This document shows, piece by piece, positions 14,523 through 30,961 of a stretch of 64,000 nucleotides of DNA. Each line of letters begins with the position of its first letter. Within the stretch, counting starts at the first letter, position 1. The stretch is taken from the IMG/VR virus record IMGVR_UViG_3300045996_001613, positions 1 through 64,000 of that record; one strand, given 5' to 3'. Source of the stretch: a virus. The position numbers and the translations under genes were made by a program. The notes under the pieces are model-generated. The model had not been told where the DNA came from. It saw only the letters and a list, made by a program, of their open reading frames with translations, and did not search any database.

Positions 14523-14654
14523 CTTACACTGTAACGGTGTACCAGAGCTAGATCTTGACAAAAGATTTCCTGGGCCGGAAAATGGAGTCCCAAGGAGGGA
14601 GGGGTTTGGGACATTCTCCGAGTCAGGACTGACTAAGAGATTGGTTGTTATTGA
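14523..14654 (+). other. Non-coding gap with two inverted repeats
   Basis: No gene seen. GTCCCAA (14587-14593) and TTGGGAC (14606-14612) form a 7-bp stem whose loop is the purine run GGAGGGAGGGGT. AGTCA/TGACT forms a second small hairpin near 14621-14634. A TTGACA at 14553-14558 could be a -35, but its -10 is poor. Could be a transcript end plus a new leader. Confidence 0.35.
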
Positions 14655-14936
14655 ATGGCTGTAACAGAAAGAGATCTCCCCGCGAACGAAGTGAGCACTC
14701 CCGGTAGGGGCAAAGTGCTGCCCTTTTTTAAGTCTATGATTGACGCTATTCTTGAGCCCTCAAGGAGGGCTCGGTATGTCCAAGACAGAAGAGGGTTCAT
14801 ATGGAGGAGAACAGCGCACTTGGCCCACCTCGGCAAGATAGCTAGCAAGGAAGACCCGATCCGGTTAGAGGTGATCGGGTGGACCACCCGAGAGATCCAG
14901 AGATACATGGCAGAACTCAAGACACTTGGTAAATAG
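14655..14936 (+). CDS. Hypothetical basic protein
   Basis: 93 residues from ATG 14655. Basic and helical, with aromatic residues (RYVQDRRGFIWRRTAHLAHL), ending GWTTREIQRYMAELKTLGK. No strong ribosome site. No family recognised. Located just before the surface-protein gene but probably separate from it, since that gene has its own promoter. Confidence 0.55.
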   Translation: MAVTERDLPANEVSTPGRGKVLPFFKSMIDAILEPSRRARYVQDRRGFIWRRTAHLAHLGKIASKEDPIRLEVIGWTTREIQRYMAELKTLGK

Positions 14937-14938
14937 CA

Positions 14939-14967
14939 TTGGCACCGACCACTATATGTGGTAGGGT
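14939..14967 (+). promoter_or_regulatory. Promoter TTGGCA-N17-TAGGGT for the LPxTG gene
   Basis: TTGGCA (14939-14944) and TAGGGT (14962-14967) are 17 bases apart. The resulting leader of about 40 bases ends in ACAGGAGGTAAC before ATG 15015. The -10 is imperfect. Confidence 0.4.
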
Positions 14968-15014
14968 GAGAGTGTGAAGAAAGTCGTCCATATAAGAAAA
15001 CAGGAGGTAACTTT

Positions 15015-15302
15015 ATGAAGAAACTGTTTGTAGTTCTAGCAATGATGGCAATGCTGTTGGCCGTCGCGGTGCCAGTGGTGGCACAGTCTGGCTCTCCCGA
15101 GCCTACGTCGCAGTACCAGTACAGCGCAAGCGCCTCGGCAAGCTCTGCACCCTCGGCGCAGTACAGCCAGTATCCCAACGAAGCACAGTATGGTGACGCT
15201 AGCGCCGGGTTCCTCCCGGATACGGGTGGGATACCACTCGCTGCGGTTGCCGGTGCTTTGCTGGTTGCAGGTGGTCTGATCGCACGGAAGATCGTTAGGT
15301 AG
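15015..15302 (+). CDS. LPxTG surface protein with signal peptide
   Basis: 95 residues. The N-terminal signal peptide (MKKLFVVLAMMAMLLAVAVP, cleavage after VVAQ) leads to a Gln/Tyr/Ser/Ala-rich low-complexity region with SASAS and QYSQY repeats. The end is a full sortase sorting signal: LPDTG (residues 67-71), a hydrophobic stretch (IPLAAVAGALLVAGGLIA) and the basic tail RKIVR. A host sortase would link it to the cell wall. It has its own promoter and an intrinsic terminator, like a moron gene. It could mask receptors or alter the host surface. Confidence 0.85.
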   Translation: MKKLFVVLAMMAMLLAVAVPVVAQSGSPEPTSQYQYSASASASSAPSAQYSQYPNEAQYGDASAGFLPDTGGIPLAAVAGALLVAGGLIARKIVR

Positions 15303-15324
15303 CACCAACCAAAGGACGGCTTTG

Positions 15325-15354
15325 AAGGGACCCCTTCGGGGGTCCTTTTCTTTA
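15325..15354 (+). terminator. Intrinsic terminator after the LPxTG gene
   Basis: AAGGGACCCC-TTC-GGGGGTCCTT followed by TTCTTT is a textbook rho-independent terminator rightward. The A-rich flank means it can also act on the convergent HNH gene, which stops at 15352. Confidence 0.85.
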
Positions 15355-15681
15355 CCCGTTTTCGTAGTGGAATCGTCGGTGGCAGTTGGCGCAGAGGACG
15401 TCGCACTTTGCGATCTCGGCTAGGATCTTGGCTAGGGTGAATCCCCTGTGTACCATGTCGCAGATCTTGTGTTCCTTGAAGTCCTCGTCCCTATGGTGAA
15501 AGTCCAGCACCGCGGGATGGTTCTCTCCACAGTTCTCGCAGCCGCGTTTGACCTTGATATCCAAGACCTGAGCGTGACGTTCTCTACGCCTCGCCTTGAC
15601 TCTATTGTGGTAATCGTTCGTGTGGTCGCGGTAGTGTTGTCGCTGCGCCTCTAGTTGCCGTGCCCGATCCTTGTATGGCAT
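15352..15681 (-). CDS. HNH endonuclease
   Basis: 109 residues from ATG 15681. The N terminus is basic. The core shows CENCG, AVLDFHHRDE (the H-H of the HNH motif), and LCANCHRRFHYENG with the second Cys pair and final catalytic His. It is a free-standing homing-type HNH next to tRNA genes. A TATACT box (15688-15683) lies two bases before the ATG, too close for normal initiation at it, so transcription may come from the tRNA promoter upstream. Confidence 0.85.
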   Translation of the reverse strand: MPYKDRARQLEAQRQHYRDHTNDYHNRVKARRRERHAQVLDIKVKRGCENCGENHPAVLDFHHRDEDFKEHKICDMVHRGFTLAKILAEIAKCDVLCANCHRRFHYENG

Positions 15682-15704
15682 GTCAATAGTATACACGAAA
15701 ATAG

Positions 15705-15778
15705 TCAGGAGGGGGGAGGCTCGAACTCCCTCATTGTGGGCCACAACCACAAGCTCTAACCCGGTAAGCTACCTCCTG
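15705..15778 (-). tRNA. tRNA-His (GTG)
   Basis: The minus strand folds with D-stem GCTT/GAGC, anticodon stem TGTGG/CCACA around loop TTGTGGC (anticodon GT G at 34-36), and T-arm GGGAG-TTCGAGC-CTCCC. The acceptor CAGGAGG/CCTCCTG pairs only if one extra C is left between T-stem and acceptor (a run of six C), and the usual extra 5' G of tRNA-His is not evident. It may be slightly degenerate. Confidence 0.75.
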
Positions 15779-15782
15779 AAAG

Positions 15783-15854
15783 TGGTCGGAGGTAGGTTTG
15801 AACTACCGTCTCCGGGATTTCACTCCGGCGCTATACCTCCTCAGCTACCCGACC
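15783..15854 (-). tRNA. tRNA-Phe (GAA)
   Basis: Acceptor GGTCGGG/TCCGACC with A73, D-arm GCTG/TAGC, anticodon loop GTGAAAT (GAA at 34-36), T-arm GGTAG-TTCAAAC-CTACC. One A-C mismatch closes the anticodon stem. No encoded CCA. Confidence 0.85.
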
Positions 15855-16231: not shown

Positions 16232-16711
16232 CTATGGACGAACTCTACGGGCTCCATCATACCCTATAAGGTAGCGTCTTTCACTCTCGACCACGGCCCC
16301 AAAGTAGTTGCTTGCGTGGACAATTTTGCCCCGGCCTGTGGCTATTCCCACATGCGTCGGGGGACCCGCGGGACCATTCTCATCGTAGAACAGTACGTCT
16401 CCGGGACGGACCCTGCGGGGTTGCCATCCGTAGTACTTTTGCCCGAGGGGGGAGTATCCGATGGACACTCCCGTCGCGGCCCTGACCGCGTAGCCGGTCA
16501 ACTCACTACAGGTCCACGCGCCTCCGCTGTACCCGTAGGGGTCTCCGATCTGAGAACGGGCCTTCGCGACAATTGCCTTGCCGTACTTGTACCCCCCGCC
16601 TCGTGCGTCTGCCTCCTTCGGCTGAACGTCTGCAAGCATCACGCTGGCAATGCATATTATCGCAATGCACAGTGCTATGAATACAAACTTGAACACCTTG
16701 CTCGCCAACAT
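16232..16711 (-). CDS. Exported NlpC/P60 cell-wall peptidase
   Basis: 159 residues from ATG 16711 (GGAGG eleven bases upstream; ATG 16729 is an alternative). An N-terminal membrane/signal segment (FVFIALCIAIICIASVMLA) precedes the catalytic domain: AWTCSELTGYAVRAATG with Cys68, then RVRPGDVLFYD, THVGIATG with His120 and KIVHASN. The domain cleaves peptidoglycan stem peptides. It lies far from the lysis genes in the exported-protein island, so it may remodel the wall during infection rather than lyse the cell. Confidence 0.85.
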   Translation of the reverse strand: MLASKVFKFVFIALCIAIICIASVMLADVQPKEADARGGGYKYGKAIVAKARSQIGDPYGYSGGAWTCSELTGYAVRAATGVSIGYSPLGQKYYGWQPRRVRPGDVLFYDENGPAGPPTHVGIATGRGKIVHASNYFGAVVESERRYLIGYDGARRVRP

Positions 16712-16866: not shown

Positions 16867-17052
16867 TTAGTCACACTTCTTGAGACCGCCAACAGACGTG
16901 TCAGCGTTCTGACCCGGCGGACACTTGCCCGTGGGATTCAGGTCGGGGTTACCTCGACCCGGACCCTCGTCTATCGCGCCCATGGCGGACGGAACAAACG
17001 AGGCCATTGCGAACAGAGTCGCGCCCATCAGAGTTGCTATCCTACGCTTCAT
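16867..17052 (-). CDS. Small secreted protein
   Basis: 61 residues from ATG 17052, with GGGAGG at the right distance (GTG 17058 would leave no spacing). A signal peptide (MKRRIATLMGATLFAMASFV, cleavage after AMG) leads to a short Gly/Pro-rich mature part with two Cys (GKCPPGQ..GLKKCD). One disulfide is possible. Family not recognised. Own promoter upstream and hairpin downstream. Confidence 0.65.
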   Translation of the reverse strand: MKRRIATLMGATLFAMASFVPSAMGAIDEGPGRGNPDLNPTGKCPPGQNADTSVGGLKKCD

Positions 17053-17127: not shown

Positions 17128-17559
17128 CTACTTGTTTGCGTAGTAGGGATCGTATCCCTGATTGATGCGGTACCGTACCTCGCCGTGCCCCGCGTAGGTC
17201 AGACCGATCTTGTCTGAGACGATCTGGTTCATGTCGAGCACTCGTCCCGTCCACACCGCGGGGCCGTAGTCGGTCACGGTGACGCCGTGTGCGCAGACCT
17301 GATAGCAGATGGTCAGCTTGGTGCCGGGGGGCAGTGTACGGCTCGCTACGGTCCAATCTTCCCACGTCAGTACATCTCCGTAGGCTGTGGTGTTCCCGTG
17401 TAGCGCGTAATACGATGCCTGTCCGTAGTACCACTCACCGTACGCTTGGGCTGGTGAGGGGTTGAGTCCCGCGGCCACTACCACTAGCGATAGCATGCCT
17501 CCTATGATGCGGTCTCGCCACCGCTTGCGCTTGCGTGCGAAGTCTCCAAACTTGTGCAT
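17128..17559 (-). CDS. Exported RlpA-like double-psi beta-barrel protein
   Basis: 143 residues with AAGGAGGGAACT before ATG 17559. A basic N terminus and signal segment (IIGGMLSLVVVAAGLNPSPA) precede a DPBB domain: YYGQASYYALHGNTTAYGD, SRTLPPGTKLTICY, VTVTDYGPAVWTGRVLDM. These resemble RlpA/resuscitation-factor-like wall-active domains. Two Cys (CYQVC) may form a disulfide. Likely acts on or binds peptidoglycan. Confidence 0.75.
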   Translation of the reverse strand: MHKFGDFARKRKRWRDRIIGGMLSLVVVAAGLNPSPAQAYGEWYYGQASYYALHGNTTAYGDVLTWEDWTVASRTLPPGTKLTICYQVCAHGVTVTDYGPAVWTGRVLDMNQIVSDKIGLTYAGHGEVRYRINQGYDPYYANK

Positions 17560-18062: not shown

Positions 18063-18272
18063 CTAGTGTATGTCGCCGTGTGCGCTGTTCTCTGACACCT
18101 TCTCCGGTAGGCACAGGGGATGCGGCTGCTTGGCCGACTGCCCATGGTTGTGCTCATACCGCGTGACGCCGTTGCCCTTCGTGTTACACTCGTTATGCGC
18201 GAGTGCTGGCATCGCAAACATCGGCACCATGAAGGCCGCGGTCACTATTAGCGTGGCTATTTTCCTCGTCAT
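18063..18272 (-). CDS. Small secreted protein with His/Cys-rich mature part
   Basis: 69 residues with GAGGAGGTGAGTA before ATG 18272. A signal peptide (MTRKIATLIVTAAFMVPMFA, cleavage after ALA) leads to HNECNTKGNGVTRYEHNHG and LCLPEK. The two Cys and several His suggest a metal site or disulfide. Reminiscent of short secreted excalibur/YHYH-type proteins, but not firmly assignable. Confidence 0.65.
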   Translation of the reverse strand: MTRKIATLIVTAAFMVPMFAMPALAHNECNTKGNGVTRYEHNHGQSAKQPHPLCLPEKVSENSAHGDIH

Positions 18273-19956: not shown

Positions 19957-20050
19957 CAAATGTATCCAGGGTGTAGCGTGCACCACGGCGTACGGGGCGA
20001 ACCCACTACACCCACTAGTAATAAGGGCTACGAGGTCAGGAGATAAGGGT

Positions 20051-20125
20051 ATGTCCGCCACAACAGTCGAGGTCAAGAAGTACGGTGCATGCACCATCCG
20101 TATCAAGGTTACAGTGGTACGATGA
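20051..20125 (+). CDS. 24-residue leader peptide coupled to the next gene
   Basis: MSATTVEVKKYGACTIRIKV then TVVR. The ribosome site and leader (AGGAGATAAGGGT-ATG) match that of the gene at 19681. The stop TGA overlaps the start of the next gene (ATGA), so it probably serves translational coupling. Confidence 0.5.
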   Translation: MSATTVEVKKYGACTIRIKVTVVR

Positions 20126-20505
20126 TAGCCTACAGGATCTATGAAGAAAGGGACGGGCAACTGTACCCACTGCAGCACAAGACACGCACCCCGGTACCCT
20201 TGAACGAATGGATGCAAGCAGACGTAAAGATGGCGCGTGATGGGTCAGGCAACAGATGGTACAAGGCGGGCTTCCACTCTGTACCTCGTATCGAAGATGC
20301 CGAGGCTTATATGCAGCATTTCAGGTCAGCCCGTCGCGAGAGGTTAAGGGTCGTCGAGGTCGAGGTTAGCAACACATGGAGCAAGGACCACTCGCCTGCC
20401 CCTGTGATCCTGTCGGAGTACATGTTGGTTAAGGGTATCGTAACTACGCAAAACACAGATTTCAATCCGAGGTCTCAGAGCTGTGATCTCGGGGAGGAGG
20501 CATAG
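20122..20505 (+). CDS. Hypothetical 127-residue protein
   Basis: ATG 20122 overlaps the leader peptide stop; an upstream ATG at 20089 is out of context. MIAYRIYEERDGQLYPLQHK and NRWYKAGFHSVPRIEDAEAY give a beta-alpha pattern, and ERLRVVEVEVSN looks like a core strand. Several actinophage genomes carry proteins of this style, but no function is known to me. Confidence 0.6.
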   Translation: MIAYRIYEERDGQLYPLQHKTRTPVPLNEWMQADVKMARDGSGNRWYKAGFHSVPRIEDAEAYMQHFRSARRERLRVVEVEVSNTWSKDHSPAPVILSEYMLVKGIVTTQNTDFNPRSQSCDLGEEA

Positions 20506-20506
20506 C

Positions 20507-20692
20507 ATGCTAGCGCAGGACGTAAAGCCTTTGGAGCGTGAGCTTCTGGACCACCTGTATCAGGTGTTGCTTGAAGCAGAGAACGATGAGCTACCGAACC
20601 CAGACCGGATACGCAAGGCACGCGCCGACTATGCCGCATGCGAGGAATGGTATGCAAGGAAGTACAGCGTAGACATGGAGGTTGCATCGTAA
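20507..20692 (+). CDS. Hypothetical helical protein
   Basis: 61 residues from ATG 20507, preceded by GGGGAGGAGG. Acidic and helical (LERELLDHLYQVLLEAENDE, then DRIRKARADYAACEEWYARK). Its stop overlaps the next start (TAATG). Not recognised. Confidence 0.6.
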   Translation: MLAQDVKPLERELLDHLYQVLLEAENDELPNPDRIRKARADYAACEEWYARKYSVDMEVAS

Positions 20693-20829
20693 TGCATGTT
20701 GCGAAGTACGAGATCAAGGCAGACGGGCGCAGGGTCGGCGTCGCGGATAAGCCTGATCAGGCCAGCGACGCGAGGAAGAAGTATCGCAACTATGGCTACA
20801 AGGTGGAGGTCAAGAAGTTCAGAGTGTGA
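20692..20829 (+). CDS. 45-residue basic protein
   Basis: MHVAKYEIKADGRRVGVADK, then a Lys/Arg-rich end (RKKYRNYGYKVEVKKFRV). It starts in a TAATG overlap. A beta-hairpin plus helix layout is possible. Its 3' end overlaps the Crp-like palindrome at 20825 by five bases. Confidence 0.55.
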   Translation: MHVAKYEIKADGRRVGVADKPDQASDARKKYRNYGYKVEVKKFRV

Positions 20830-20840
20830 ACGAATTCACA
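20825..20840 (+). promoter_or_regulatory. Crp-like palindrome, copy 2, with downstream promoter
   Basis: TGTGAACGAATTCACA, centre 20832.5. A -10 TAGACT lies at 20862-20867, predicting a start near 20874, so the site centres at about -41.5. GTCAACGGTAACGG follows at the start site. Confidence 0.7.
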
Positions 20841-20901
20841 GCGGGGGATAAGGGTAGGGCTTAGACTAGTGTCAACGGTAACGGAACGAACGGAGGACAG
20901 G

Positions 20902-21138
20902 ATGCAGTACCTAGACCGGAACTACAGCAGCAAGGCCGCAGTCAAGAGGGCTCTGGCCGAGGGTGCCGAGATCAGGGTCAACGTGGTTGAGCCGCAGATC
21001 TCGGGCCGCAGCGTCAAGAGCAAGAAGTTCGGCACCGTGACCGAGCACACCGTCGCGGGTCCATGGTTTCCCCAGCCGCATAGCTGGTACGGCAACGTCC
21101 GCGTCAACGACGCGGGCCTCGTGGTCGAGGTCAAGTAA
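20902..21138 (+). CDS. Hypothetical beta-rich protein
   Basis: 78 residues from ATG 20902 (AACGGAGGACAGG upstream); GTG 20869 is rejected because it lies upstream of the predicted transcript start. NYSSKAAVKRALAEGAEIRV resembles a short helix-strand unit, then repeated strands (GTVTEHTVAGPW, GNVRVNDAGLVVEVK). First gene of a Crp-site-controlled unit. Function unknown. Confidence 0.6.
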   Translation: MQYLDRNYSSKAAVKRALAEGAEIRVNVVEPQISGRSVKSKKFGTVTEHTVAGPWFPQPHSWYGNVRVNDAGLVVEVK

Positions 21139-21380
21139 TGGCGCAGACCGACGAGACCAAGGCGATCAAGGCAAAGGTACGGGCCGCGAAGCAGAATCTG
21201 CAGAAGGCAGAGAGGCTGATCCTCGACGCGGAAAAGGGCGAGGTCAGCGTGCACATCGGTAGCCTACTGGCCGCGGGATACGCGATGATGGCAACACACG
21301 ACGCGCAGGACGCGGAGCGCAACGCTCGCGGACTGCACGCGGCGACGGAGGACAGCTACCACGAGGAGGTCTCGGCGTAA
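21138..21380 (+). CDS. Hypothetical helical protein
   Basis: 80 residues, coupled through TAATG. Long Ala/Lys-rich helices (AIKAKVRAAKQNLQKAERLI, then HDAQDAERNARGLHAATEDS) suggest a helical hairpin or coiled coil. Not recognised. Confidence 0.6.
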   Translation: MAQTDETKAIKAKVRAAKQNLQKAERLILDAEKGEVSVHIGSLLAAGYAMMATHDAQDAERNARGLHAATEDSYHEEVSA

Positions 21381-21412
21381 CGCCGGGACCTCTCTACCCG
21401 AAGGGAGCAGCA

Positions 21413-21865
21413 ATGCCAGCCATCACCCCGGAGCAGATAGACCAGAAGTTCGGCGGACAGTACTCCGAGAACTACACCTTAGGCGTACGCCATGGGGTCA
21501 AGGCCGAGACCAGCGTAGTGCACGCGACCATCGGTCGCGCAGAGGACAACCTGTTCGCCACGACCGAGGCGCAGTGGGACTACCTCGACGGTTGGGTTCA
21601 GGGGCGCGTCGAGTGGGACGCGGCGGTTGAGGGCGATCAGGTCTACGAGCAGTATGCTCGGATGTTCACGGACGGCAAGTTCGACGTGACAGACATGGTG
21701 CGATTCTTCCTCGCGGACCTCGCGACGGAGGACGTGTACATCGCGATACCCGCGGCAGGCGACCCGTTCGCGGCTGCTCTGCGCGAGGCCGAGTGCGATA
21801 TGCTGGCTCTGTACCTCGACGACAAAATCACTGCCGACCAGTACCTCTATGCGAGGGGAGCGTAA
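21413..21865 (+). CDS. Hypothetical acidic helical protein
   Basis: 150 residues, with GAAGGGAGCAGC before ATG 21413. Rich in Asp, Glu and Ala with aromatic residues (AQWDYLDGWVQGRVEWDAAV). No motif or membrane segment. Family not recognised. Confidence 0.6.
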   Translation: MPAITPEQIDQKFGGQYSENYTLGVRHGVKAETSVVHATIGRAEDNLFATTEAQWDYLDGWVQGRVEWDAAVEGDQVYEQYARMFTDGKFDVTDMVRFFLADLATEDVYIAIPAAGDPFAAALREAECDMLALYLDDKITADQYLYARGA

Positions 21866-21866
21866 G

Positions 21867-22106
21867 ATGGAGCAGAAGTACGTCGTAGCCGAGCAAGACC
21901 CGAGCCTCAGCCCGAGCCGTGAACTCGGGCTGTCCTCCTCCGGTGTACGGATGGACCTGTACTCAGCCCTGTCGACGGCTGCGGAAGCAGCCCGCAGGTA
22001 CGGCACAGCACATGAGGTCCGCGTCGTGACCCGCGAGTATGACTCCGGCACGTTCGCGGTCGGGGCCAGCCGGTACACCGTCGACCCCTCGGAGGTCAGC
22101 GCATGA
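21867..22106 (+). CDS. Hypothetical 79-residue protein
   Basis: ATG 21867 follows GAGGGGAGCG; the previous stop is two bases away. MEQKYVVAEQDPSLSPSREL, then a helix (LYSALSTAAEAARRYG) and two strands (EVRVVTREYDSGTFAVGASR). Overlaps the next gene by 4 bases. Confidence 0.6.
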   Translation: MEQKYVVAEQDPSLSPSRELGLSSSGVRMDLYSALSTAAEAARRYGTAHEVRVVTREYDSGTFAVGASRYTVDPSEVSA

Positions 22107-22324
22107 GCATGACTCTGACGGACGTACGCAACGCGGTACCAGCCATGACCGACGGCATGCTGGTGGAGCTATACTGCCAGTACAGCACCTTTGCCGACCG
22201 TAACCCTGACTCCGACGAGGGGCGATACAAGGCGAAAATGGAGATCGTAGACGCGGAGTCTAAGAAGAGGCACCGTCCACACGTGGACGCGAAGAAGGCG
22301 ACGAAGTGGGGGTATTGGAAGTGA
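22103..22324 (+). CDS. Hypothetical 73-residue protein
   Basis: MSMTLTDVRNAVPAMTDGML, then LYCQYSTFADRNPDSDEG and a basic end (KKRHRPHVDAKKATKWGYWK). The layout (MTDxxLxxLYxxY..) resembles short phage proteins of unknown role, also seen in the 27429 gene (YELCSLYCDYHEW). Coupled on both sides. Confidence 0.6.
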   Translation: MSMTLTDVRNAVPAMTDGMLVELYCQYSTFADRNPDSDEGRYKAKMEIVDAESKKRHRPHVDAKKATKWGYWK

Positions 22325-23049
22325 ACATCGCAGTGCTATTCGACGGCGCAGGGCTCGCACGACTCGGGCTAGAGCAGGCGGGGCATACGTGCACCGGATA
22401 CGAGCTAGATCCGTGGAAGCACTACCTCTCGCAGTTCGTGGGCTCGGGGAATTCCGTGCTCGCGGACGTACGCGACGTGGACCTGTCCCCCTACGATGCA
22501 GTGTGGGCATCGCCCCCGTGCCAGTGGCACAGCAGCGCACGCACGCAAGGGGACCCGGTCTCGGGCTTCGCGACCGATCTCCTAGAGTGGTCTCTGAACC
22601 TCGACGTGGGTGTCCTGTGGGTGGAGAACATCATGAGCCAGACTGCCAGCCTCAATACGTGGGGCACCAAGTACAACGCGGCTCAGTTCCTATCCGTCCC
22701 CATCCAGAATCGCAACCGCATCGTCGGCGGTCACTATCGCGAGCCGTTTGTGTACGCGAGCTACCGGCGTACGTTCGCGGGGATCTGCCCCTGCATCACG
22801 GCCAGCGAGTACAAGGGCTGCGCCTCCGACACGCGCAGGGCGTCGCGCTACTACGGGCGTCGCCTGACTGTCGGGGAGTGTGCCGACCATCAGGGGCTCA
22901 CCATTCCCCCCGAGTGGCACACCGTACCCGAGGGATTCACGCCGGGACGTTGGAGGCAGAATCTCTACGAGGCGATTGGTAACGGGGTCCCCGTCTACAT
23001 GGCGCGTGGCTTCGGTGAGATGTACCCGGCGAAATCCAGGGGATTGTAA
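22321..23049 (+). CDS. DNA (cytosine-5) methyltransferase-like protein, compact form
   Basis: 242 residues from GTG 22321, overlapping the previous stop. Motif I is FDGAGLARLGLEQAG, motif IV ASPPCQWHS with Cys67 of the PCQ loop, motif VI WVENI, and motif X is EAIGNGVPVYMARGF. The region between VI and X is short and carries CPCITASEY. It is smaller than the second methyltransferase at 40744, so the target domain may be reduced. Probable role is protection from host restriction. Confidence 0.85.
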   Translation: MNIAVLFDGAGLARLGLEQAGHTCTGYELDPWKHYLSQFVGSGNSVLADVRDVDLSPYDAVWASPPCQWHSSARTQGDPVSGFATDLLEWSLNLDVGVLWVENIMSQTASLNTWGTKYNAAQFLSVPIQNRNRIVGGHYREPFVYASYRRTFAGICPCITASEYKGCASDTRRASRYYGRRLTVGECADHQGLTIPPEWHTVPEGFTPGRWRQNLYEAIGNGVPVYMARGFGEMYPAKSRGL

Positions 23050-23070
23050 CTGCCGGCACAAGCTCGAGAT

Positions 23071-23086
23071 TGTGAACGAATTCACA
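23071..23086 (+). promoter_or_regulatory. Crp-like palindrome, copy 3, with downstream promoter
   Basis: TGTGAACGAATTCACA, centre 23078.5. A -10 GATAAT at 23108-23113 predicts a start near 23120, again about -41.5. Directly upstream lies TGCCGGCACAAGCTCGAGAT, a variant of the segment at 18696. Confidence 0.7.
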
Positions 23087-23119
23087 GACAACGGTAGCCG
23101 AGTAGGAGATAATGCGGGA

Positions 23120-23486
23120 GCAATGAGAAGGACAACGACAAGGGGAGAGACATGTGAACTCAGAGGGGCGAGCCTGACGGTCCTGACCCCAACAGGCGAG
23201 ACGGTCGGAGTACCAGACCGGCGGGGATGTGGGCGCGAGCCCGTGCATGAAAGAGAGCACACCCAGCGAGGGCCGCTGGTAAGGAGGCTCACATCCCCTG
23301 ATGGCGAGGCAGATACGGGCGCAGTGGTGCGAACGGCTCATGGGGCTGATCACCCCGGCAAGCCTAGTAGCACGGTGAAAATCCCACGGCTAACTGCCGT
23401 GCCGATGGCGACAATGGGGCTGATCACCCCGGAGTCGACCGGGAAAGCTGCGCCGGTATCTGCCCCGACCACGAATGGAGGAGCAC
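23120..23486 (+). ncRNA. Structured non-coding leader or RNA gene
   Basis: About 370 bases with no supported gene (a long open frame here lacks a ribosome site and codon bias). It contains a four-way junction: GGGGATGT (23223-23230) pairs with ACATCCCC (23291-23298), enclosing GGGC-GCGA-GCCC with a GNRA loop (23231-23242), GTGC/GCAC (23243-23260) and CCAGCG/CGCTGG (23263-23279). Further hairpins are GCACGG/CCGTGC (23370-23402) and two copies of a GGGG..CCCC element. It begins at the predicted start of the Crp-site promoter and leads into the 60-residue gene. Confidence 0.6.
23340..23432 (+). repeat. 19-bp direct repeat, each copy a small hairpin
   Basis: ATGGGGCTGATCACCCCGG occurs exactly at 23340-23358 and 23414-23432, 74 bases apart. 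GGGG and CCCC can pair around CTGATCA. The GCACGG/CCGTGC hairpin lies between the two copies. Confidence 0.8.
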
Positions 23487-23669
23487 ATGAGACCGCCAGC
23501 ACGACATACGGTGGACGGGGTGCACAAGCGCACCGGGATGATAGTCACGGTGAAGCTGGGCTTCGCCTCTCACCGGGATGCGCACAACTACATAACCAAG
23601 CACCTGACCGAACTGCACGTCAGGGGAATAGACCCGGTGCACGTCGGGACGGACAGGACGGGCGCGTAA
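23487..23669 (+). CDS. Hypothetical 60-residue protein in the RNA locus
   Basis: AATGGAGGAGCAC precedes ATG 23487. KRTGMIVTVKLGFASHRDAH, then NYITKHLTELHVRGIDPVHV looks like a small beta-alpha-beta fold. Its last ten bases overlap the 5' end of the tmRNA-like element, so the RNA 5' end must be processed or the gene is dispensable. Function unknown. Confidence 0.55.
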   Translation: MRPPARHTVDGVHKRTGMIVTVKLGFASHRDAHNYITKHLTELHVRGIDPVHVGTDRTGA

Positions 23670-23738
23670 TGGGTTCGACGGGTGCAACGGGCGCGAGCGC
23701 CCAACACCCGGAGGAGAGTTCGATTCTCTCCGCGTCCA
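23660..23738 (+). ncRNA. tmRNA-like RNA lacking the mRNA domain
   Basis: Acceptor GGGCGCG (23660-23666) pairs with CGCGTCC (23731-23737) in 7 bp with a G3:U70 wobble, followed by A73 and CTA in place of CCA. The 5' side then reads GGGTTCGACGGG, the conserved D-region sequence of tmRNAs. The T-arm is GAGAG-TTCGATT-CTCTC. Where tmRNA has a long mRNA domain, there is only GGGTG/CACCC closing a GGGCG-CGAG-CGCCC hairpin; no tag frame fits. G3:U70 is the identity element for alanyl-tRNA synthetase. No SmpB gene was seen. Confidence 0.75.
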
Positions 23739-23746
23739 CTACGAGT

Positions 23747-23867
23747 CCCGGCATGGTACGGGAGAGACACGCTGAAACACCACGCACGGCCACTGCGGTA
23801 GTCATGACCCGCATGCTTTCAAAGTGTCTCTGGTTGAATATACGCGACTCTCCCACACCATGCCGGG
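23747..23867 (+). ncRNA. Long imperfect hairpin after the tmRNA-like RNA
   Basis: CCCGGCATGGT (23747-23757) pairs with ACCATGCCGGG (23857-23867), then a 2x2 internal loop, then GGGAGAG (23760-23766) with CTCTCCC (23848-23854). Inside, AGAGACAC and GTGTCTCT offer a competing pairing. It may be a processing signal, a terminator or part of the same RNA. It overlaps no supported gene. Confidence 0.6.
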
Positions 23868-23904
23868 GCTCGGCTGTAGTCAACACCGACCGGGAGGTCT
23901 GACC

Positions 23905-24039
23905 GTGGACACTATGGACCTGCACAACTGGCGTGAATGGAGCGCAGAGCAGTTCGCCCTCGACGCGGAGGCCGAGGTCTCCGAGGACGAGATAGCCGCG
24001 AGCTACGCGGCCACGAACCCCCACGAGGAGGTAGAGTAA
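23905..24039 (+). CDS. 44-residue acidic protein
   Basis: GTG 23905 has GGGAGG seven bases upstream; ATG 23914 is an alternative. The sequence (DLHNWREWSAEQFALDAEAE, ending NPHEEVE) is helical and strongly acidic. Coupled to the next gene by TAATGA. Function unknown; small acidic phage proteins sometimes mimic DNA. Confidence 0.5.
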   Translation: MDTMDLHNWREWSAEQFALDAEAEVSEDEIAASYAATNPHEEVE

Positions 24040-24236
24040 TGACCGGAGTACACGGCCCACTGGTCGTCCGCGAGGTCTGGATCGTCGGGCCAGTGATGTC
24101 GGAGTTCGTCGGCTTCATGAACCGCGTAAATTCCCGCATCAAGGTCGGCAGGATAGCCGAGCTAAATGGGTGGGAGGTATGGGATCGCGAGATAAACGAG
24201 ACACACGACACCTTTTGGCTGAGGGAGGCATCATGA
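24039..24236 (+). CDS. Hypothetical 65-residue protein
   Basis: MTGVHGPLVVREVWIVGPVM, then NRVNSRIKVGRIAELNGWEV and a polar end. It begins in TAATGA and ends in an ATGA overlap. Alpha/beta, no motif recognised. Confidence 0.55.
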   Translation: MTGVHGPLVVREVWIVGPVMSEFVGFMNRVNSRIKVGRIAELNGWEVWDREINETHDTFWLREAS

Positions 24237-24400
24237 CCACCACGAGCATCGCGAAGGCCCGCCAACAACTCAAGCGGCAGTACCGGAAGATATCGACCGG
24301 CGTGCTCTATGGATGGATGGCCGTCTACCTCGTCGAGGACAACGAGTACATGTGCACCACAATCCGCGAGGTACTGCGGGAGAGGGGCGAGCAGATATGA
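24233..24400 (+). CDS. Hypothetical 55-residue basic protein
   Basis: MTTTSIAKARQQLKRQYRKI, then LYGWMAVYLVEDNEYMCTTI. Basic N-terminal helix followed by strands. Overlaps neighbours on both sides by 4 bases. Not recognised. Confidence 0.55.
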   Translation: MTTTSIAKARQQLKRQYRKISTGVLYGWMAVYLVEDNEYMCTTIREVLRERGEQI

Positions 24401-24750
24401 TGCACCTAGAGTGGCATCTGGACAAGCTGAACGACGCGGCTAACGAACTAGCCCACAACGCCAAGCACCGCGAACTGACCGAGGAGGAGATCGTCGAGTT
24501 CAAGCAGGAGTTCACCGACCAGATCCGCAACCTGCAGGACGAGGTATCGTCCCTCGGAGGACACCTGACCGACGCGGTAAACGAACTGTACGAAATGCTG
24601 CCGAAGTGCGAACAGTGCGACGAGATCCTGACCGAGGACAACATCGCGGACACGGCAGACCTACGAGACGCGAAGGTCTGCGCCGACTGCCAGTACGACA
24701 TGGACCCCATGAACGACGTGAACTACGTCGGTCACCCGATGCACTACTAA
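24397..24750 (+). CDS. Coiled-coil protein with zinc ribbon
   Basis: 117 residues. A long helix (HLDKLNDAANELAHNAKHRE, then EFKQEFTDQIRNLQDEV) precedes KCEQCDEIL and VCADCQYDM, two CxxC pairs. The layout (dimerising coil plus ribbon) resembles DksA/TraR-type proteins in outline only. A nucleic-acid or RNA polymerase partner is conceivable. Confidence 0.65.
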   Translation: MMHLEWHLDKLNDAANELAHNAKHRELTEEEIVEFKQEFTDQIRNLQDEVSSLGGHLTDAVNELYEMLPKCEQCDEILTEDNIADTADLRDAKVCADCQYDMDPMNDVNYVGHPMHY

Positions 24751-24751
24751 T

Positions 24752-24767
24752 TGTGAATTCGTTCACA
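24752..24767 (+). promoter_or_regulatory. Crp-like palindrome, copy 4, with downstream promoter
   Basis: TGTGAATTCGTTCACA, the reverse complement of copies 2 and 3, centre 24759.5. An extended -10 TGTTACACT ends at 24793, predicting a start near 24800, so the site centres at about -40.5. GTCAACGGTAAGG again covers the start. Confidence 0.7.
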
Positions 24768-24830
24768 GATATCACGGCACAATTTGTTACACTTGAGGTC
24801 AACGGTAAGGACGATCAGGAGGTAGGCAAG

Positions 24831-25451
24831 ATGCAGTACAAGGTGGACCCGAAGATCCAAAAGCTCTGCGACGAGGGCGTGAAGTACATCGCGGAGTTCT
24901 TGGATCTAGTCGACACCCGCAAGCTGTACGAGTTCAAGATCCGGCAGTCTGATAGCGCACGCGCCATCCCCTGCGCGTATGGCAACTGCAAGTCTCCGCG
25001 TCGCTCGTCGATTCTCGGTGGCGGCAGCGGCCAGACCGCGGGATTCCGCATCTCAGTCTCCCTCAAGGGCAGCGACGACGATTTCCCGTGGGCTCCGGGC
25101 TCGTGGGGTCGACGGGGCTATCTCCGGCACGCGGGTGAAATCCACCACGGACATGTAGGCACTACGCTAGCCGAGCAGATGGTCTTCGTGTCCGGTCACG
25201 AGTTCCTGCACTACGCGGCCCTGTCGGGGCTGTGTCCGGTGCGATACAGCCAAGAGTACAACGCGGATCGGTTCGGATACGATATGATGCATTCCTTCCG
25301 AGAAGGCGTCGATCCGGTCTTCCTCGCGGAACACTTCGATACCAACATCTGCCACGACCCCGGACACTACGCGCATCAGGTGCCTACGCGAATCGCGCAT
25401 CAGCGAGCACCGTACGCGGCACTGCCCCCGACCATACGGAAGGGGATCTAG
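24831..25451 (+). CDS. Zinc metallopeptidase-like protein (HExxH..NAD)
   Basis: 206 residues with AGGAGGTAGGCAAG before ATG 24831. QMVFVSGHEFLHYAALSG contains HEFLH (residues 123-127), and EYNADRFGY (142-150) gives the third ligand Glu and the NAD pattern of M48/M56-like gluzincins. The N-terminal half has several Cys (PCAYGNCKS). It lacks membrane helices. First gene of a Crp-site-controlled unit. Target unknown. Confidence 0.7.
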   Translation: MQYKVDPKIQKLCDEGVKYIAEFLDLVDTRKLYEFKIRQSDSARAIPCAYGNCKSPRRSSILGGGSGQTAGFRISVSLKGSDDDFPWAPGSWGRRGYLRHAGEIHHGHVGTTLAEQMVFVSGHEFLHYAALSGLCPVRYSQEYNADRFGYDMMHSFREGVDPVFLAEHFDTNICHDPGHYAHQVPTRIAHQRAPYAALPPTIRKGI

Positions 25452-25561
25452 TGGCCGTCACGCTGATCGCGATGCTGTTCATCGCGGTGTTCATCGGGCT
25501 ACTGACCAAGCTGCCGGTAAGGTTCACCAACGAGTTCACAGGGGAGGACACCGATGATTGA
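25451..25561 (+). CDS. 36-residue membrane protein
   Basis: GTG 25451 follows the previous stop, with GGAAGGGG upstream. MAVTLIAMLFIAVFIGLLTK is one membrane helix; the tail (RFTNEFTGEDTDD) is acidic. Overlaps the next gene by 8 bases. Confidence 0.5.
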   Translation: MAVTLIAMLFIAVFIGLLTKLPVRFTNEFTGEDTDD

Positions 25562-26132
25562 TCCGATGAACGTCACCGACTTCGACCGCAGCGATGCAGA
25601 GCTAGAGGAGTTCTTTCTCTTCGCTGTGCTGGTCGCGAACAAGAACTCCGATAGGATGGCTCGGGCTCTGGATTTTCTGCTCCGGCAGGGTGAGCCGGGA
25701 GACTCCCCCTTTGACACGATCAGGCGCATGGTACTCGACGGCTCGATGCCCCTCCGCCTGATTCAGGCGAAGACCGGAGAGTATGGTCGACGCCTCAAGA
25801 CCCTGACCGAGGTCGCGACCGGCATGGTGCCAAACCTCCGCAATGCGGAGCCGGAGGACCTAGAGCAGATCCACGGCGTCGGGCTCAAGACGGCACGATT
25901 CTTCCTCATGCACAGCAGGCGCAACAGCCAGTACGCCGCGATAGACACTCACATCCTCAAGTACATGAGGGAGTTCTATGGGCACAAAGTTCCCAACCGT
26001 ACGCCCACCAACCGGGAGGAGTACCGGGAGCTAGAGGAATGGTTTGTCTTGCAGTGCGCCATCGAGGGCGTCACCCCCGCGGCGAAGGACCTAGAGGTAT
26101 GGAAGCTATACAGTGGGAGAGTAAGCGCATGA
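25554..26132 (+). CDS. HhH-GPD DNA glycosylase/lyase (EndoIII-like)
   Basis: 192 residues. The helix-hairpin-helix EQIHGVGLKTARFFLMHSR carries Lys112 in the EndoIII catalytic-Lys position, and AAIDTHILKYMRE carries the catalytic Asp131. The C-terminal FeS cluster of EndoIII is absent (no Cys quartet). It should excise damaged or modified bases and cut the strand. In a phage with two cytosine methyltransferases it may repair DNA or act on host DNA. Confidence 0.85.
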   Translation: MIDPMNVTDFDRSDAELEEFFLFAVLVANKNSDRMARALDFLLRQGEPGDSPFDTIRRMVLDGSMPLRLIQAKTGEYGRRLKTLTEVATGMVPNLRNAEPEDLEQIHGVGLKTARFFLMHSRRNSQYAAIDTHILKYMREFYGHKVPNRTPTNREEYRELEEWFVLQCAIEGVTPAAKDLEVWKLYSGRVSA

Positions 26133-26437
26133 GCACCACGATAGACGGACAGAAGACTCGCGTCTCCATGGATGGCACGCTGCCCTCGGAGATAGAGGGT
26201 GCCGAGCACATCAGCACCCTGCGAGCCGGAGGACGTGGCCGCAGAACATGGTACCGGGCTCTGTACTACGTAGAGCAGGGGTACGTGGTCTACGACTACG
26301 CCTACCATGACCGGATGCCAGACGCGACAGTCGGCTGGCTCAAGGGATACATGGACCGGGAGACTGTGGGCCGCGAGCACGCGGAGTTCTCGGAGGCACT
26401 GACCGCGAGGGACGATGCGAAAGGGGGTGAAGAGTGA
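26129..26437 (+). CDS. Hypothetical 102-residue protein
   Basis: Starts in an ATGA overlap. EHISTLRAGGRGRRTWYRAL, then YYVEQGYVVYDYAYHDRM: a strand-rich core with many Tyr. The tail is acidic. No motif identified. Confidence 0.6.
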   Translation: MSTTIDGQKTRVSMDGTLPSEIEGAEHISTLRAGGRGRRTWYRALYYVEQGYVVYDYAYHDRMPDATVGWLKGYMDRETVGREHAEFSEALTARDDAKGGEE

Positions 26438-26526
26438 GCAGGATCACCGACCTCGTACTGACCGTAGTCCTCGGGCCACTGATTATCTACGGGATAGCCA
26501 CAACTGTAATCGAAATTCTTCTCTAG
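26434..26526 (+). CDS. 30-residue membrane peptide
   Basis: GTG 26434 overlaps the previous stop. MSRITDLVLTVVLGPLIIYG continues to IATTVIEILL; similar in pattern (xxD-V-V..G-P-I-I) to the membrane part of the 29167 gene. Likely a single-pass membrane peptide. Confidence 0.5.
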   Translation: MSRITDLVLTVVLGPLIIYGIATTVIEILL

Positions 26527-26536
26527 GAGGCTAGTG

Positions 26537-27169
26537 ATGCAGGATACACAACCGTACCTCGCGACCGAGTGGGGAGGCCAGCAGTGGATTATCTTTGCGA
26601 AGGCGTACCCCCACGCGATGAATAAGGCGAACAAGGTAGGCATAGACCACAAGTATCTCCGGGAGATAGAGGAAGATGAGTATCCGGTCTCGTGGGACAA
26701 GGTCGGAGAGTACAGCTACCTCTCGTCGGGAAGTGCCGAGGTATGGCGCGTGTTCGACTACTGCCCCTTTGCTTCGACCCTCGACGGGTCACACCTGCCC
26801 GACGAGGAGCCGGGAGAGGTTGAGGGTGAGGACCTGACCCCTCCGTACATCAGCATGGGCTTGCCGGTCTTCCGCGTACGTGTGGAGCCCTTCGCAACCG
26901 GCGACGGATGGTCTGCCACTGTGCTGCTGTGGAAGAGAGAGGACGGCACGGGTCCGCAGGGCATGGACCCCGACGCGATACTCACGTCTCTCTCCAGTGA
27001 AGCGTTCTTCGCCTACCTCAACATCAAGCAGACCCTCGACAGCATGGGCGTGGCCGGGTTCATCGAGCCCGAGTTCGCACCACATGGATCACGCAAGGGG
27101 TTCTACAACATGGACTCCACGCAAGAGAGAATGCCACTCCAGGCACAAACCAATCAAGGAGGCAAGTAA
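26537..27169 (+). CDS. Hypothetical 210-residue protein
   Basis: CTAGGAGGCTAGTG precedes ATG 26537. Features include YLATEWGGQQWIIFAKAYPH, a long acidic loop (DEEPGEVEGEDLTPP) and YLNIKQTLDSMGVAGFIEPE. Alpha/beta without membrane segments. Family not recognised. One of the longer genes of this small-gene block. Confidence 0.6.
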   Translation: MQDTQPYLATEWGGQQWIIFAKAYPHAMNKANKVGIDHKYLREIEEDEYPVSWDKVGEYSYLSSGSAEVWRVFDYCPFASTLDGSHLPDEEPGEVEGEDLTPPYISMGLPVFRVRVEPFATGDGWSATVLLWKREDGTGPQGMDPDAILTSLSSEAFFAYLNIKQTLDSMGVAGFIEPEFAPHGSRKGFYNMDSTQERMPLQAQTNQGGK

Positions 27170-27429
27170 TGGCAAGACGAGAACTCGCGACCGCGATTGT
27201 GTCCGACACGATCCTGACCGTAGTCCGCAGGGACGTGGGCGACTACGCGCTAGAGATCGAGTACCCGAACGGGGATACCCTCAAGTACGGGTCCCTCGAC
27301 GTGCGTGATGTGTTCACCAGCATGGGCGACGAAGTGCGCCTGCTACTCCACAAGGAGGGGACGTTCAGCGAGGAAGAGAAGCACTTCCTCAAGATTATGG
27401 ACCGGCTTCCCGAGTCGGAGGAGGCGTGA
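27169..27429 (+). CDS. Hypothetical 86-residue protein
   Basis: Coupled via TAATG with GGAGGCAAG upstream. LATAIVSDTILTVVRRDVGD, then YALEIEYPNGDTLKYGSLDV: beta-rich start and helical, acidic end. Not recognised. Confidence 0.6.
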   Translation: MARRELATAIVSDTILTVVRRDVGDYALEIEYPNGDTLKYGSLDVRDVFTSMGDEVRLLLHKEGTFSEEEKHFLKIMDRLPESEEA

Positions 27430-27620
27430 TGTACGAGGACCGTAGCGACTACGAGTTGTGCTCACTCTACTGCGACTACCACGAGTGGTTGGAAACAGGT
27501 AGCGATATAAAGCCCAACGTAAGGGAGAAATACGAAAACCACTTGGCCGAGATTATGCGAGAGATCGCACGTCGTTACAAGTGGGCGACGCAGACGGCAC
27601 ACTACAAGAAGGGGCAGTGA
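27429..27620 (+). CDS. Hypothetical 63-residue protein
   Basis: ATG 27429 lies in TGATG. SDYELCSLYCDYHEWLETGS, then VREKYENHLAEIMREIARRY: similar in style to the 22103 protein (short acidic helix, YC-Y core, basic helix). Perhaps a duplicated small helical family. Confidence 0.55.
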   Translation: MYEDRSDYELCSLYCDYHEWLETGSDIKPNVREKYENHLAEIMREIARRYKWATQTAHYKKGQ

Positions 27621-27856
27621 TGGATTGCAAGCACCCCAAGGTGGCGCAGAGGTACGGCGTTACCGAACAGCCGCGGCACATCCCCGACGTGTTCACCGGA
27701 CTATGGCCGCAGTGGTACCAGTTCTGTACCCACTGCGGTGATCTGGTCGATGAACGGTGGGTACATCCCGACAAACTGACCGACGGGCAGTTATTCACCC
27801 TACTGATGAGCAATGCGGAGTGCGACGCTGTAGTACAACAATACGAGAGTCAATAG
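27620..27856 (+). CDS. Small CxxxH/CxxC zinc-binding protein
   Basis: 78 residues, TGATG start. DCKHPK near the N terminus and FCTHCGDLVDER supply Cys/His ligands for one zinc. The end (VVQQYESQ) is nearly the same as that of the next gene (VVQYESQ) because a 45-bp DNA segment is duplicated over both gene ends. Confidence 0.6.
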   Translation: MDCKHPKVAQRYGVTEQPRHIPDVFTGLWPQWYQFCTHCGDLVDERWVHPDKLTDGQLFTLLMSNAECDAVVQQYESQ

Positions 27857-28265
27857 TGGGAGGTAGCATGAACACCGTCGAGCAGGCGATACGTGCCAGC
27901 CTGACCCCCGAGCTATTAAAGCCGGAGTACCGGGGGTCAGACCGGCCATACGCGGGCCACTGCTACGTCGCGAGTGAGGCGTACTGGCATCTCCGTGGTC
28001 GCAGCCACGGCTACATCCCCCACCGGATCAAGCACGAGGGGTCGACGCACTGGTACCTCATGCGCCGCAACACCGGAGAGGTCATAGACCTGACCGCGGA
28101 GCAGTTCGAGACATCTGTTCCATACTCCGAGGGTGTGGGCTGCGGCTTCCTAACAAGCAAGCCGAGCAAGAGGGCACAGACCGTGATAGACCGGGTGCTA
28201 CTTCGCTTACTGATGCCCACTGTAGTACAATACGAGAGTCAATAGTAGGAGGTAACGTGAACACC
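27828..28265 (+). repeat. Duplicated gene-junction promoter segment
   Basis: 27828-27876 and 28220-28265 are near-identical: CTGTAGTACAA(CAA)TACGAG, AGTCAATAGT, then a GGAGGTA ribosome site and RTGAACACC start. The second copy has a clean TACAAT (28226-28231). The start predicted from each -10 falls on GTCAATAGT. Confidence 0.75.
27868..28245 (+). CDS. YunG-like protein
   Basis: 125 residues from ATG 27868 (GGGAGGTAGC). GHCYVASEAYWHLRGRSHGY, then THWYLMRR and GEVIDLTAEQF match the YunG-family pattern (Cys-Ala-Ser in a helix, H-W-x-L strand, D-T-x-x-Q-F). The Cys and His could form a papain-like dyad, but the biochemical role of the family is unknown to me. Confidence 0.65.
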   Translation: MNTVEQAIRASLTPELLKPEYRGSDRPYAGHCYVASEAYWHLRGRSHGYIPHRIKHEGSTHWYLMRRNTGEVIDLTAEQFETSVPYSEGVGCGFLTSKPSKRAQTVIDRVLLRLLMPTVVQYESQ

Positions 28266-28835
28266 ATCGAGCGCAAGCAGAAGATAGAGGAACTGGTTGG
28301 AGAGGTCCTGATGCACGTGCGTGCCGACCTCACCCACGCGGAGAGCAATCTGCGCCTTCTCCGCCGCCAGTCGTCCGACAACAACGTGGACTGGTTTCTC
28401 GGAAACATCACGAAGCAGGCCACCCTAGCTGCGGCATCGCTGCAGGTCATGCTCAAACAACTAGACGAGAAGGGACTGACCACCGCGGAACTTGCGGCTG
28501 CGGTCGAGGAGAGGGAGTCCTTTCAGGAGGCATTGGAGTCCAGCCCTCAGGTCACGCCCGCGATGCTGCAGGACTGGTTCGGGGACAACCCCTCTGACGG
28601 GATGGCGAAGTACGGGGATGGTGGGATCGAAATCAACCCCGATCTCGGGGCCGAGTACAAGAGTGCATTGGGGGAGCACCAAAAGGCACAGGAGGAGATC
28701 GCGAAAGCCCGGCGGTTCCTCGACGTGGAGTCCGTAGTCGGGTATTCCAACGTCAGCCAGTGCGAGGAGACGGACGAGCCCCACGAGATCGAGGCGTTGG
28801 GTGACCCGTCCAACCCGGAGGAGGTCTCCCACTAG
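28257..28835 (+). CDS. Hypothetical helical protein
   Basis: 192 residues, GTG start after GGAGGTAAC and its own promoter. Mostly helical (IERKQKIEELVGEVLMHVRA; HQKAQEEIAKARRFL), with an acidic C terminus. No motif. Its first residues (MNTIE) mirror those of the preceding gene (MNTVE) because of the duplicated DNA. Confidence 0.6.
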   Translation: MNTIERKQKIEELVGEVLMHVRADLTHAESNLRLLRRQSSDNNVDWFLGNITKQATLAAASLQVMLKQLDEKGLTTAELAAAVEERESFQEALESSPQVTPAMLQDWFGDNPSDGMAKYGDGGIEINPDLGAEYKSALGEHQKAQEEIAKARRFLDVESVVGYSNVSQCEETDEPHEIEALGDPSNPEEVSH

Positions 28836-29170
28836 TGGGAGACCTGATCTACTTCCCCGGCTCTGATCCGGAGGAAAGGGAGAAGCGTGCTCGCAAGCTA
28901 GAGCGTGCGCGTAACAACCTCTTGGATATCTTCGACCATCTTGGCCTCGACGAGGCGAGGGTAGAGTACCTAGAGCTACTAGAAGAGGCGAAGAAACAGC
29001 GTCTCACGATTGAGTTCTTGGAGCGCAAGCATAGGATGGTCTCCAAGAACATACACGCCTACGAGCAGGAAGAGAGAATCGTTCTCAAGTTCGACAAGAC
29101 GGGGAGGTACGTAGGGTACGTGGATAGGGACACCGGGGAATTGAAGAAACATGTACGGGAGGAGACGTGA
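28835..29170 (+). CDS. Coiled-coil protein
   Basis: 111 residues from GTG 28835 in a TAGTG overlap. Highly charged helices (EREKRARKLERARNNLLDIF; YLELLEEAKKQRLTIEFLER), then a small beta end (RIVLKFDKTGRYVGYVDRDT). Not recognised. Confidence 0.6.
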   Translation: MGDLIYFPGSDPEEREKRARKLERARNNLLDIFDHLGLDEARVEYLELLEEAKKQRLTIEFLERKHRMVSKNIHAYEQEERIVLKFDKTGRYVGYVDRDTGELKKHVREET

Positions 29171-29298
29171 GGCACTGCTACTGCATCGGTCGCTGCCGGT
29201 GTCGAGCAGGATGCCTCGACGTAGTGATCAGCGTAATCTTTGGACCCATCATCATCCTGTGCATTGTGCTCGGGCTGATCGAGTGGCTGTTCGGATAG
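29167..29298 (+). CDS. 43-residue Cys-rich membrane protein
   Basis: GTG 29167 overlaps the previous stop. MRHCYCIGRCRCRAGCL packs five Cys in 16 residues before a membrane helix (VVISVIFGPIIILCIVLGLI). The Cys cluster could bind a metal at the membrane surface. No family known to me. Confidence 0.55.
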   Translation: MRHCYCIGRCRCRAGCLDVVISVIFGPIIILCIVLGLIEWLFG

Positions 29299-29305
29299 GA
29301 GATTA

Positions 29306-29476
29306 ATGGTAGATACAGTTGAGTCCACGCCGCTGACCAAGATGCTCGACGAGGGTATCACGGCGCTGACGAAGGAAGAACTGATCGGACTGTGGGGGTA
29401 CTGCCGGAAGCACGGATACACCGCGACCGCGGAGTTAGCGGTCGAGGAGATGGGGGATAGGGGGATGGAACTGTGA
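29306..29476 (+). CDS. Hypothetical 56-residue protein
   Basis: TAGGAGATTA precedes ATG 29306. TKMLDEGITALTKEELIGLW, then YCRKHGYTATAELAVEEMGD: helical, acidic. Overlaps the next gene by GTGA. Confidence 0.5.
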   Translation: MVDTVESTPLTKMLDEGITALTKEELIGLWGYCRKHGYTATAELAVEEMGDRGMEL

Positions 29477-29577: not shown

Positions 29578-29585
29578 GAGAGCAT

Positions 29586-30900: not shown

Positions 30901-30961
30901 AGGTACAAGCGTCAATAGTGGCGCAGTAGCCATGTCGTGCAAGCGACACAAGGAGGCGAAC

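What the first reader, a model, noticed from the sequence alone, without database searches (positions are those of the whole stretch)
15015..15302. Sortase-anchored LPDTG surface protein encoded by a phage
Signal peptide, low-complexity stalk and a complete LPDTG-hydrophobic-basic sorting signal in 95 residues, with its own promoter and terminator. It would coat the infected cell wall through host sortase and could block superinfection or change adhesion. It also implies a Gram-positive host with class-matching sortase.
Basis: partly seen in the sequence, partly recalled or inferred. Interest (0 to 1): 0.72.

Follow-up and report, generated by a model that had tools for sequence, protein, structure and literature searches.

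The report
Phage copy of host wall-anchor protein
A complete soil phage carries a tiny gene for a protein that looks made to be fixed to its host's cell wall, and the gene, down to its transcription stop signal, matches a family of wall proteins of Rubrobacter-like bacteria, so the phage probably took it from its host, perhaps to change the surface of infected cells.

Summary
ORF 15015-15302 (+) encodes 95 residues: signal peptide, 42-residue Ser/Ala/Gln/Tyr stalk, and LPDTG + hydrophobic stretch + basic tail. It has a strong Shine-Dalgarno and terminator; its own promoter is only a weak match. The record is a complete-looking phage genome (83,577 bp, exact 127-bp end repeat) without a detectable tyrosine integrase.

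What is new here is its origin. Among 396 Actinomycetota genomes, 36 have homologs: 33 lie in one family of 39 genomes, 3 elsewhere. One family genome has exactly the published length of Rubrobacter xylanophilus DSM 9941. Host proteins share the signal peptide, QYQY/SASA stalks and 62-79% of the sorting signal. The DNA match runs into the terminator. All 25 host genomes tested have 4-23 sortases. The phage protein lacks the two-Cys region of most host members.

Two family genomes carry prophages with related tail genes; one also bears a different LPNTG gene beside its integrase.

So sortase anchoring of a captured host gene is well supported by sequence; blocking superinfection is untested. 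Phage-borne LPXTG proteins are known (SasX), so this is a new variant of a known kind.

The parts
15015..15302 (+). CDS of the 95-aa LPDTG protein (P0001)
   Evidence: homologous to Rubrobacteraceae LPXTG proteins
15015..15086 (+). signal peptide MKKLFVVLAMMAMLLAVAVPVVAQ (10-14 of 24 residues identical to host proteins)
   Evidence: cleavage after VVA is inferred from the sequence
15087..15212 (+). low-complexity stalk, 42 residues rich in Ser, Ala, Gln, Tyr
   Evidence: sequence; QYQYS and SASA runs also in host stalks; profile score of this part alone only 6.9 bits
15213..15299 (+). sorting signal LPDTGG + hydrophobic stretch + RKIVR
   Evidence: TIGR01167 16.6 bits vs cut-off 15.9; 18-23 of 29 residues identical to host; 38.0 bits to host profile
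15002..15007 (+). Shine-Dalgarno AGGAGG; ACAGGAGGTA also precedes several host genes
15325..15350 (+). intrinsic terminator with CCCCTTCGGGG core, the only such core in the window; same loop in several host genes
14939..14967 (+). weak candidate promoter TTGGCA-17-TAGGGT
   Evidence: consensus match only
14555..14583 (+). better candidate promoter TTGACA-17-GAAAAT, like those of host LPXTG genes
   Evidence: 0.06 expected by chance in the window; consensus match only
14655..14936 (+). 93-aa ORF of unknown function between that promoter and the LPDTG gene
   Evidence: coding status uncertain
15352..15681 (-). HNH-like protein bordering the variable place; conserved in relative L004
   Evidence: 70%; HNH reading is by eye, no Pfam hit
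15704..15854 (-). tRNA-His (15704-15778) and tRNA-Phe (15782-15854)

Best explanation
The gene is an accessory transcription unit derived from a Rubrobacteraceae host (shown by homology of signal peptide, sorting signal and 3' terminator). In the infected cell the protein would be exported by Sec, cleaved after VVA, held by its C-terminal hydrophobic stretch, and joined to the wall by a host sortase that cuts between T and G of LPDTG. This leaves about 46 residues of Ser/Ala/Gln/Tyr stalk on the surface (inferred, about 85% likely if the gene is expressed). Because the two-Cys region of most host members is missing, the most likely role is a bulk change of the infected cell's surface, by adding domain-less stalks in place of or among host coat proteins, which would lower adsorption of further phages (inferred, about 35%).
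For: Homologs in 33 of 39 genomes of one family and only 3 of the other genomes in a 396-genome phylum sample, those 3 without the C-terminal part. 67.3 bits to the host profile vs shuffle maximum 42.1. DNA match through the stop codon into the terminator, 70% over 15213-15353. Shared CCCCTTCGGGG loop and ACAGGAGGTA. All 25 host-lineage genomes tested have 4-23 sortases. Host identity supported by tail-gene homologs found only in prophages of this family, 2 of 396 genomes, and by G077's 3,225,748-bp chromosome. Absent from the nearest relative at the same place, so accessory.
Against: No expression, export or wall-linkage data. The motif scores only borderline in general models. Only one phage copy is known, so selection cannot be tested. 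The stalk has no binding domain. No CRISPR spacer ties this phage to a host genome.
Confidence: 0.75

Rival explanations
1. Sortase decoy: a minimal substrate that occupies the host sortase, so that other sortase-anchored proteins, perhaps phage receptors, are displayed less.
For: The protein is reduced to export and sorting signals plus a spacer; hosts have many sortase substrates and sortases.
Against: 4-23 sortases per genome make saturation hard. No sign of exceptional expression. Host genomes hold short domain-less versions of their own, 89 and 109 aa.
Confidence: 0.15
2. Passenger: a host gene picked up at a hotspot beside an HNH-like gene and tRNAs, without benefit to the phage.
For: Single known viral copy, absent in the nearest relative, variable place.
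Against: The frame and all signals are intact although identity to hosts has fallen to about 50% in the signal peptide and 62-79% in the sorting signal, and GC content (0.59) is nearer the phage's (0.567) than most host copies', which suggests long residence. A related prophage has its own LPNTG gene.
Confidence: 0.15
3. Membrane protein only: exported and held by the C-terminal hydrophobic stretch, not linked to the wall.
For: Borderline anchor-model scores; one host relative has LPQSG in place of LPxTG.
Against: LPDTGG is intact and occurs in host members; host genomes have sortases.
Confidence: 0.1
4. Chance ORF in a GC-rich region that happens to resemble a sorting signal.
For: TIGR01167 rings loosely in all 14 control genomes; a 252-aa antisense ORF covers the place.
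Against: 67.3 bits vs shuffle maximum 42.1; homologs concentrated in one bacterial family; DNA homology includes the terminator.
Confidence: 0.01

Closest known systems
Small multicopy LPXTG proteins of Rubrobacteraceae (MKKVMLLAAMLAMVLAAAAPALAQ...LPETGGASLLALGAGALLVAGGLLARRIVR)
   Same: Signal peptide, stalk composition, sorting signal, Shine-Dalgarno, terminator loop
   Different: Host copies are mostly 141-235 aa with a two-Cys region; the phage copy is 95 aa without it
SasX, LPXTG surface protein of the phiSPbeta-like prophage of MRSA ST239 (PMC10232760)
   Same: Phage-borne gene for a cell-wall-anchored protein
   Different: SasX sits on a prophage and acts in colonisation and aggregation; here a stalk-only protein in a phage without a detected tyrosine integrase; no sequence comparison was made
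LPNTG excalibur-like protein in the G145 prophage
   Same: Sortase-substrate gene inside a phage of the same host family, among accessory genes
   Different: Different mature part; next to an integrase and a lipoprotein nuclease; reading of excalibur is by eye
Membrane- or lipoprotein-type superinfection exclusion proteins of Gram-positive phages (Sie2009, Ltp; from memory)
   Same: Small phage proteins exported to the cell envelope
   Different: Those are membrane- or lipid-anchored with demonstrated exclusion; no sequence relation was tested here

Membership tests
Sortase substrates (LPXTG proteins) | N-terminal signal peptide | tested here: met
   MKK + hydrophobic run + VVAQ; homologous to host signal peptides, 10-14 of 24 identical; no SignalP available
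Sortase substrates (LPXTG proteins) | C-terminal LPXTG + hydrophobic stretch + basic tail | tested here: met
   LPDTGG...RKIVR; TIGR01167 16.6 vs 15.9 in the genome scan but 13.9 in the protein scan; 18-23 of 29 identical to host
Sortase substrates (LPXTG proteins) | Sortase available in the host | tested here: met
   PF04203 in 25 of 25 host-lineage genomes, 4-23 copies; the host itself is inferred
Sortase substrates (LPXTG proteins) | Covalent linkage to the wall | not testable with these tools
   needs wall fractionation
Rubrobacteraceae small LPXTG family | Homologous ends | tested here: met
   67.3 bits vs shuffle maximum 42.1
Rubrobacteraceae small LPXTG family | Two-Cys region between signal peptide and stalk | tested here: not met
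   absent in P0001; also absent in two short host versions, so it is not universal in the family
Lysogenic-conversion gene (SasX-like) | Carried by a temperate phage | tested here: inconclusive
   no PF00589 match in the record, which has a 127-bp end repeat; serine integrases and plasmid-like maintenance were not searched across the whole genome
Superinfection exclusion proteins | Blocks adsorption or DNA entry of other phages | not testable with these tools
   needs adsorption and plating assays

The most novel reading that the evidence does not exclude
Phages of Rubrobacteraceae repeatedly take up host sortase substrates, and this phage without a detectable integrase uses a stripped stalk version to rebuild the wall coat of the infected cell during lytic growth, so that infected cells differ on their surface from their neighbours.
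Probability: 0.25. Interest if true: 0.7.

Novelty: new variant of a known kind. Interest (0 to 1): 0.45.

Why it matters
Phage-borne sortase substrates known to me come mostly from prophages of pathogens. Here a complete-looking phage without a detected tyrosine integrase holds a stalk-only host mimic together with the host-type terminator. It ties an unassigned soil phage to Rubrobacteraceae, desert-soil bacteria linked to viruses by CRISPR spacers in metagenomes (PMC8269230). It also offers a small, testable gene for the question of how phages change the surface of cells they infect.

Tried and rejected
tblastn-based searches for relatives of P0001, of a host member and of the host alignment found nothing, but they are not informative: with filtering on, tblastn misses even the true host/phage pair. 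They were replaced by a six-frame genome search and by DNA patterns, which recover 51 host sites (C-terminal) and 33 host or own sites (signal peptide) among sequences already held and find none in viral contigs.

Host identification by terminase gave only MAGs of six unlike taxa, probably mis-binned phage contigs, and was dropped.

LPXTG-model hits in four related phage records are membrane stretches without the motif.

Short DNA matches (29-51 bases) between the phage and Rubrobacteraceae were looked at as possible CRISPR spacers for the first 20 kb; no array is visible by eye. An automatic repeat search failed on coordinates and was not repeated. For 20001-40000 and 44001-64000 the matches were judged by length and identity only; 40001-44000 and 64001-83577 were not searched.

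NlpC/P60 and DPBB queries gave no viral relatives by single-protein scan, although L004 has both, so these scans are insensitive too.

No structure prediction was run: the mature part is low-complexity and would fold poorly.

Full report
Observation. The 95-codon ORF at 15015-15302 (+) is as described: signal peptide, low-complexity stalk, LPDTG sorting signal, AGGAGG at 15002-15007, and a hairpin terminator at 15325-15350 (-21.9 kcal/mol). Its own promoter is only a weak match (TTGGCA-17-TAGGGT, 14939-14967). A TTGACA-17-GAAAAT site at 14555-14583 is the only one of its type in the window and resembles the promoters of the host genes described below. Domain models alone are borderline: TIGR01167 gives 13.9 or 16.6 bits against 15.9, and Pfam Gram_pos_anchor misses.

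Genome. The record is a virus of 83,577 bp with an exact 127-bp terminal repeat, which argues for a complete, circularly assembled genome. It has terminase, portal, DnaB, SSB, RNase H, RusA, cytosine methylases, RNA ligase and a 3,499-aa tape-measure-like protein. No tyrosine integrase was found. Terminase relatives are contigs of IMG/VR. The nearest, L002-L004 (apparently fragments of one phage type; terminase 71%), keeps the neighbouring HNH-like gene and, in L004, the secreted NlpC/P60 and DPBB proteins, but has no LPXTG gene at that place. The gene is therefore an accessory in a variable spot beside an HNH-like gene and tRNA-His/tRNA-Phe.

Origin. P0001 was searched in 396 genomes drawn evenly from Actinomycetota: 36 matched. 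33 of these belong to one family of 39 held genomes. The other three match within residues 3-72 only. The family's G077 has a chromosome of 3,225,748 bp, the published size of Rubrobacter xylanophilus DSM 9941 (NC_008148; PMC4510606 and PMC5405348). I take the family to be Rubrobacteraceae.

Homology. Host proteins read MKKVMLLAAMLAMVLAAAAPALAQ ... QYQYSAPAA or SASASA ... LPETGGASLLALGAGALLVAGGLLARRIVR. P0001 shares 10-14 of 24 signal-peptide residues and 18-23 of 29 sorting-signal residues. It scores 67.3 bits against a 13-protein host profile; 1000 region-wise shuffles reach at most 42.1. The middle part alone scores only 6.9 bits, so the homology claim rests on the two ends. With the profile, 39 of 39 family genomes have members, often several (that profile included P0001 as one of 14 rows). 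The DNA match to a host gene (15213-15353, 70%, E 4e-5) runs past the stop codon into the terminator. CCCCTTCGGGG occurs once in the window (0.03 expected), while several host copies end in the same loop. Most host proteins have a two-Cys region that the phage protein lacks, but two short host versions without it (89 and 109 aa) were seen.

Host and sortase. All 25 host-lineage genomes tested carry sortase PF04203, 4 to 23 copies. Independent support for the host: phage gene g1 (184-1203) has homologs in only 2 of 396 genomes, both in this family. Both lie in prophages with integrases and further related tail genes. No CRISPR spacer was recognised among DNA matches to 60 kb of the phage. Published work links Rubrobacter MAGs to viruses by spacers in Atacama soil (PMC8269230).

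A second case. In the G145 prophage, between a lipoprotein nuclease gene that is shared with the G155 prophage and the integrase, lies a gene for an excalibur-like LPNTG protein (G145:C6:48515-48958). Its mature part does not resemble P0001, and it was not seen in the G155 prophage. Phages of this host family thus appear to have taken up sortase substrates at least twice.

Mechanism. Shown: homology, intact frame, signals, host sortases. Inferred: export, sortase cleavage between T and G, wall display of a 46-residue stalk. Less certain: the purpose. A change of the infected cell's surface that lowers adsorption is my first choice (about 35%); sortase decoy and passenger are the main rivals.

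Uniqueness. Exact-pattern scans of viral contigs, with patterns that do match host genes already held, found no other viral copy. Earlier tblastn scans had no power for this protein. Phage-borne LPXTG proteins as such are known, e.g. SasX (PMC10232760). The new points are the stalk-only form, the capture with terminator, and the phage without a detected integrase.

Noticed in passing
L156:12515-12958 (G145:C6:48515-48958) and L156:11519-12514: A Rubrobacteraceae prophage with tail genes related to this phage carries an excalibur-like LPNTG protein and a lipoprotein thermonuclease-like protein next to its integrase: a possible lysogenic-conversion pair.
   Followed up: partly
window 56039-57337 (-): Sulfatase (PF00884, E 5e-35, plus PF16347) with a CTPTR motif encoded among tail genes; might act on sulfated glycans.
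   Followed up: no
window 16232-16711 (-) and 17128-17559 (-): NlpC/P60 and double-psi beta-barrel proteins, both with signal peptides, conserved in the relative L004; the DPBB protein has homologs in 35 of 39 Rubrobacteraceae genomes.
   Followed up: partly
window 47430-48428 (-): Secreted right-handed beta-helix protein (PF13229); in L004 its homolog lies next to the HNH-like gene near the place of the LPDTG gene, so it has moved.
   Followed up: no
window 16867-17052 (-) and 18063-18272 (-): Two more small ORFs with signal-peptide-like starts near the LPDTG gene, without family matches.
   Followed up: no
window 63329-64000 continuing in L001, and L001 (genome 67579-71691, -): Very large tail proteins; that at 67579-71691 looks by eye to have RCC1-like repeats.
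   Followed up: no
window 39848-40000: The SSB gene matches DNA of most Rubrobacteraceae genomes at 69-76% identity, presumably their SSB genes; further hint at the host.
   Followed up: no
window 48591-49229 (-): tRNA-Pro, tRNA-Met and tRNA-Asn genes in a gene-poor stretch; 49156-49237 and 48837-48909 match DNA of Rubrobacteraceae genomes at 75-82%.
   Followed up: no
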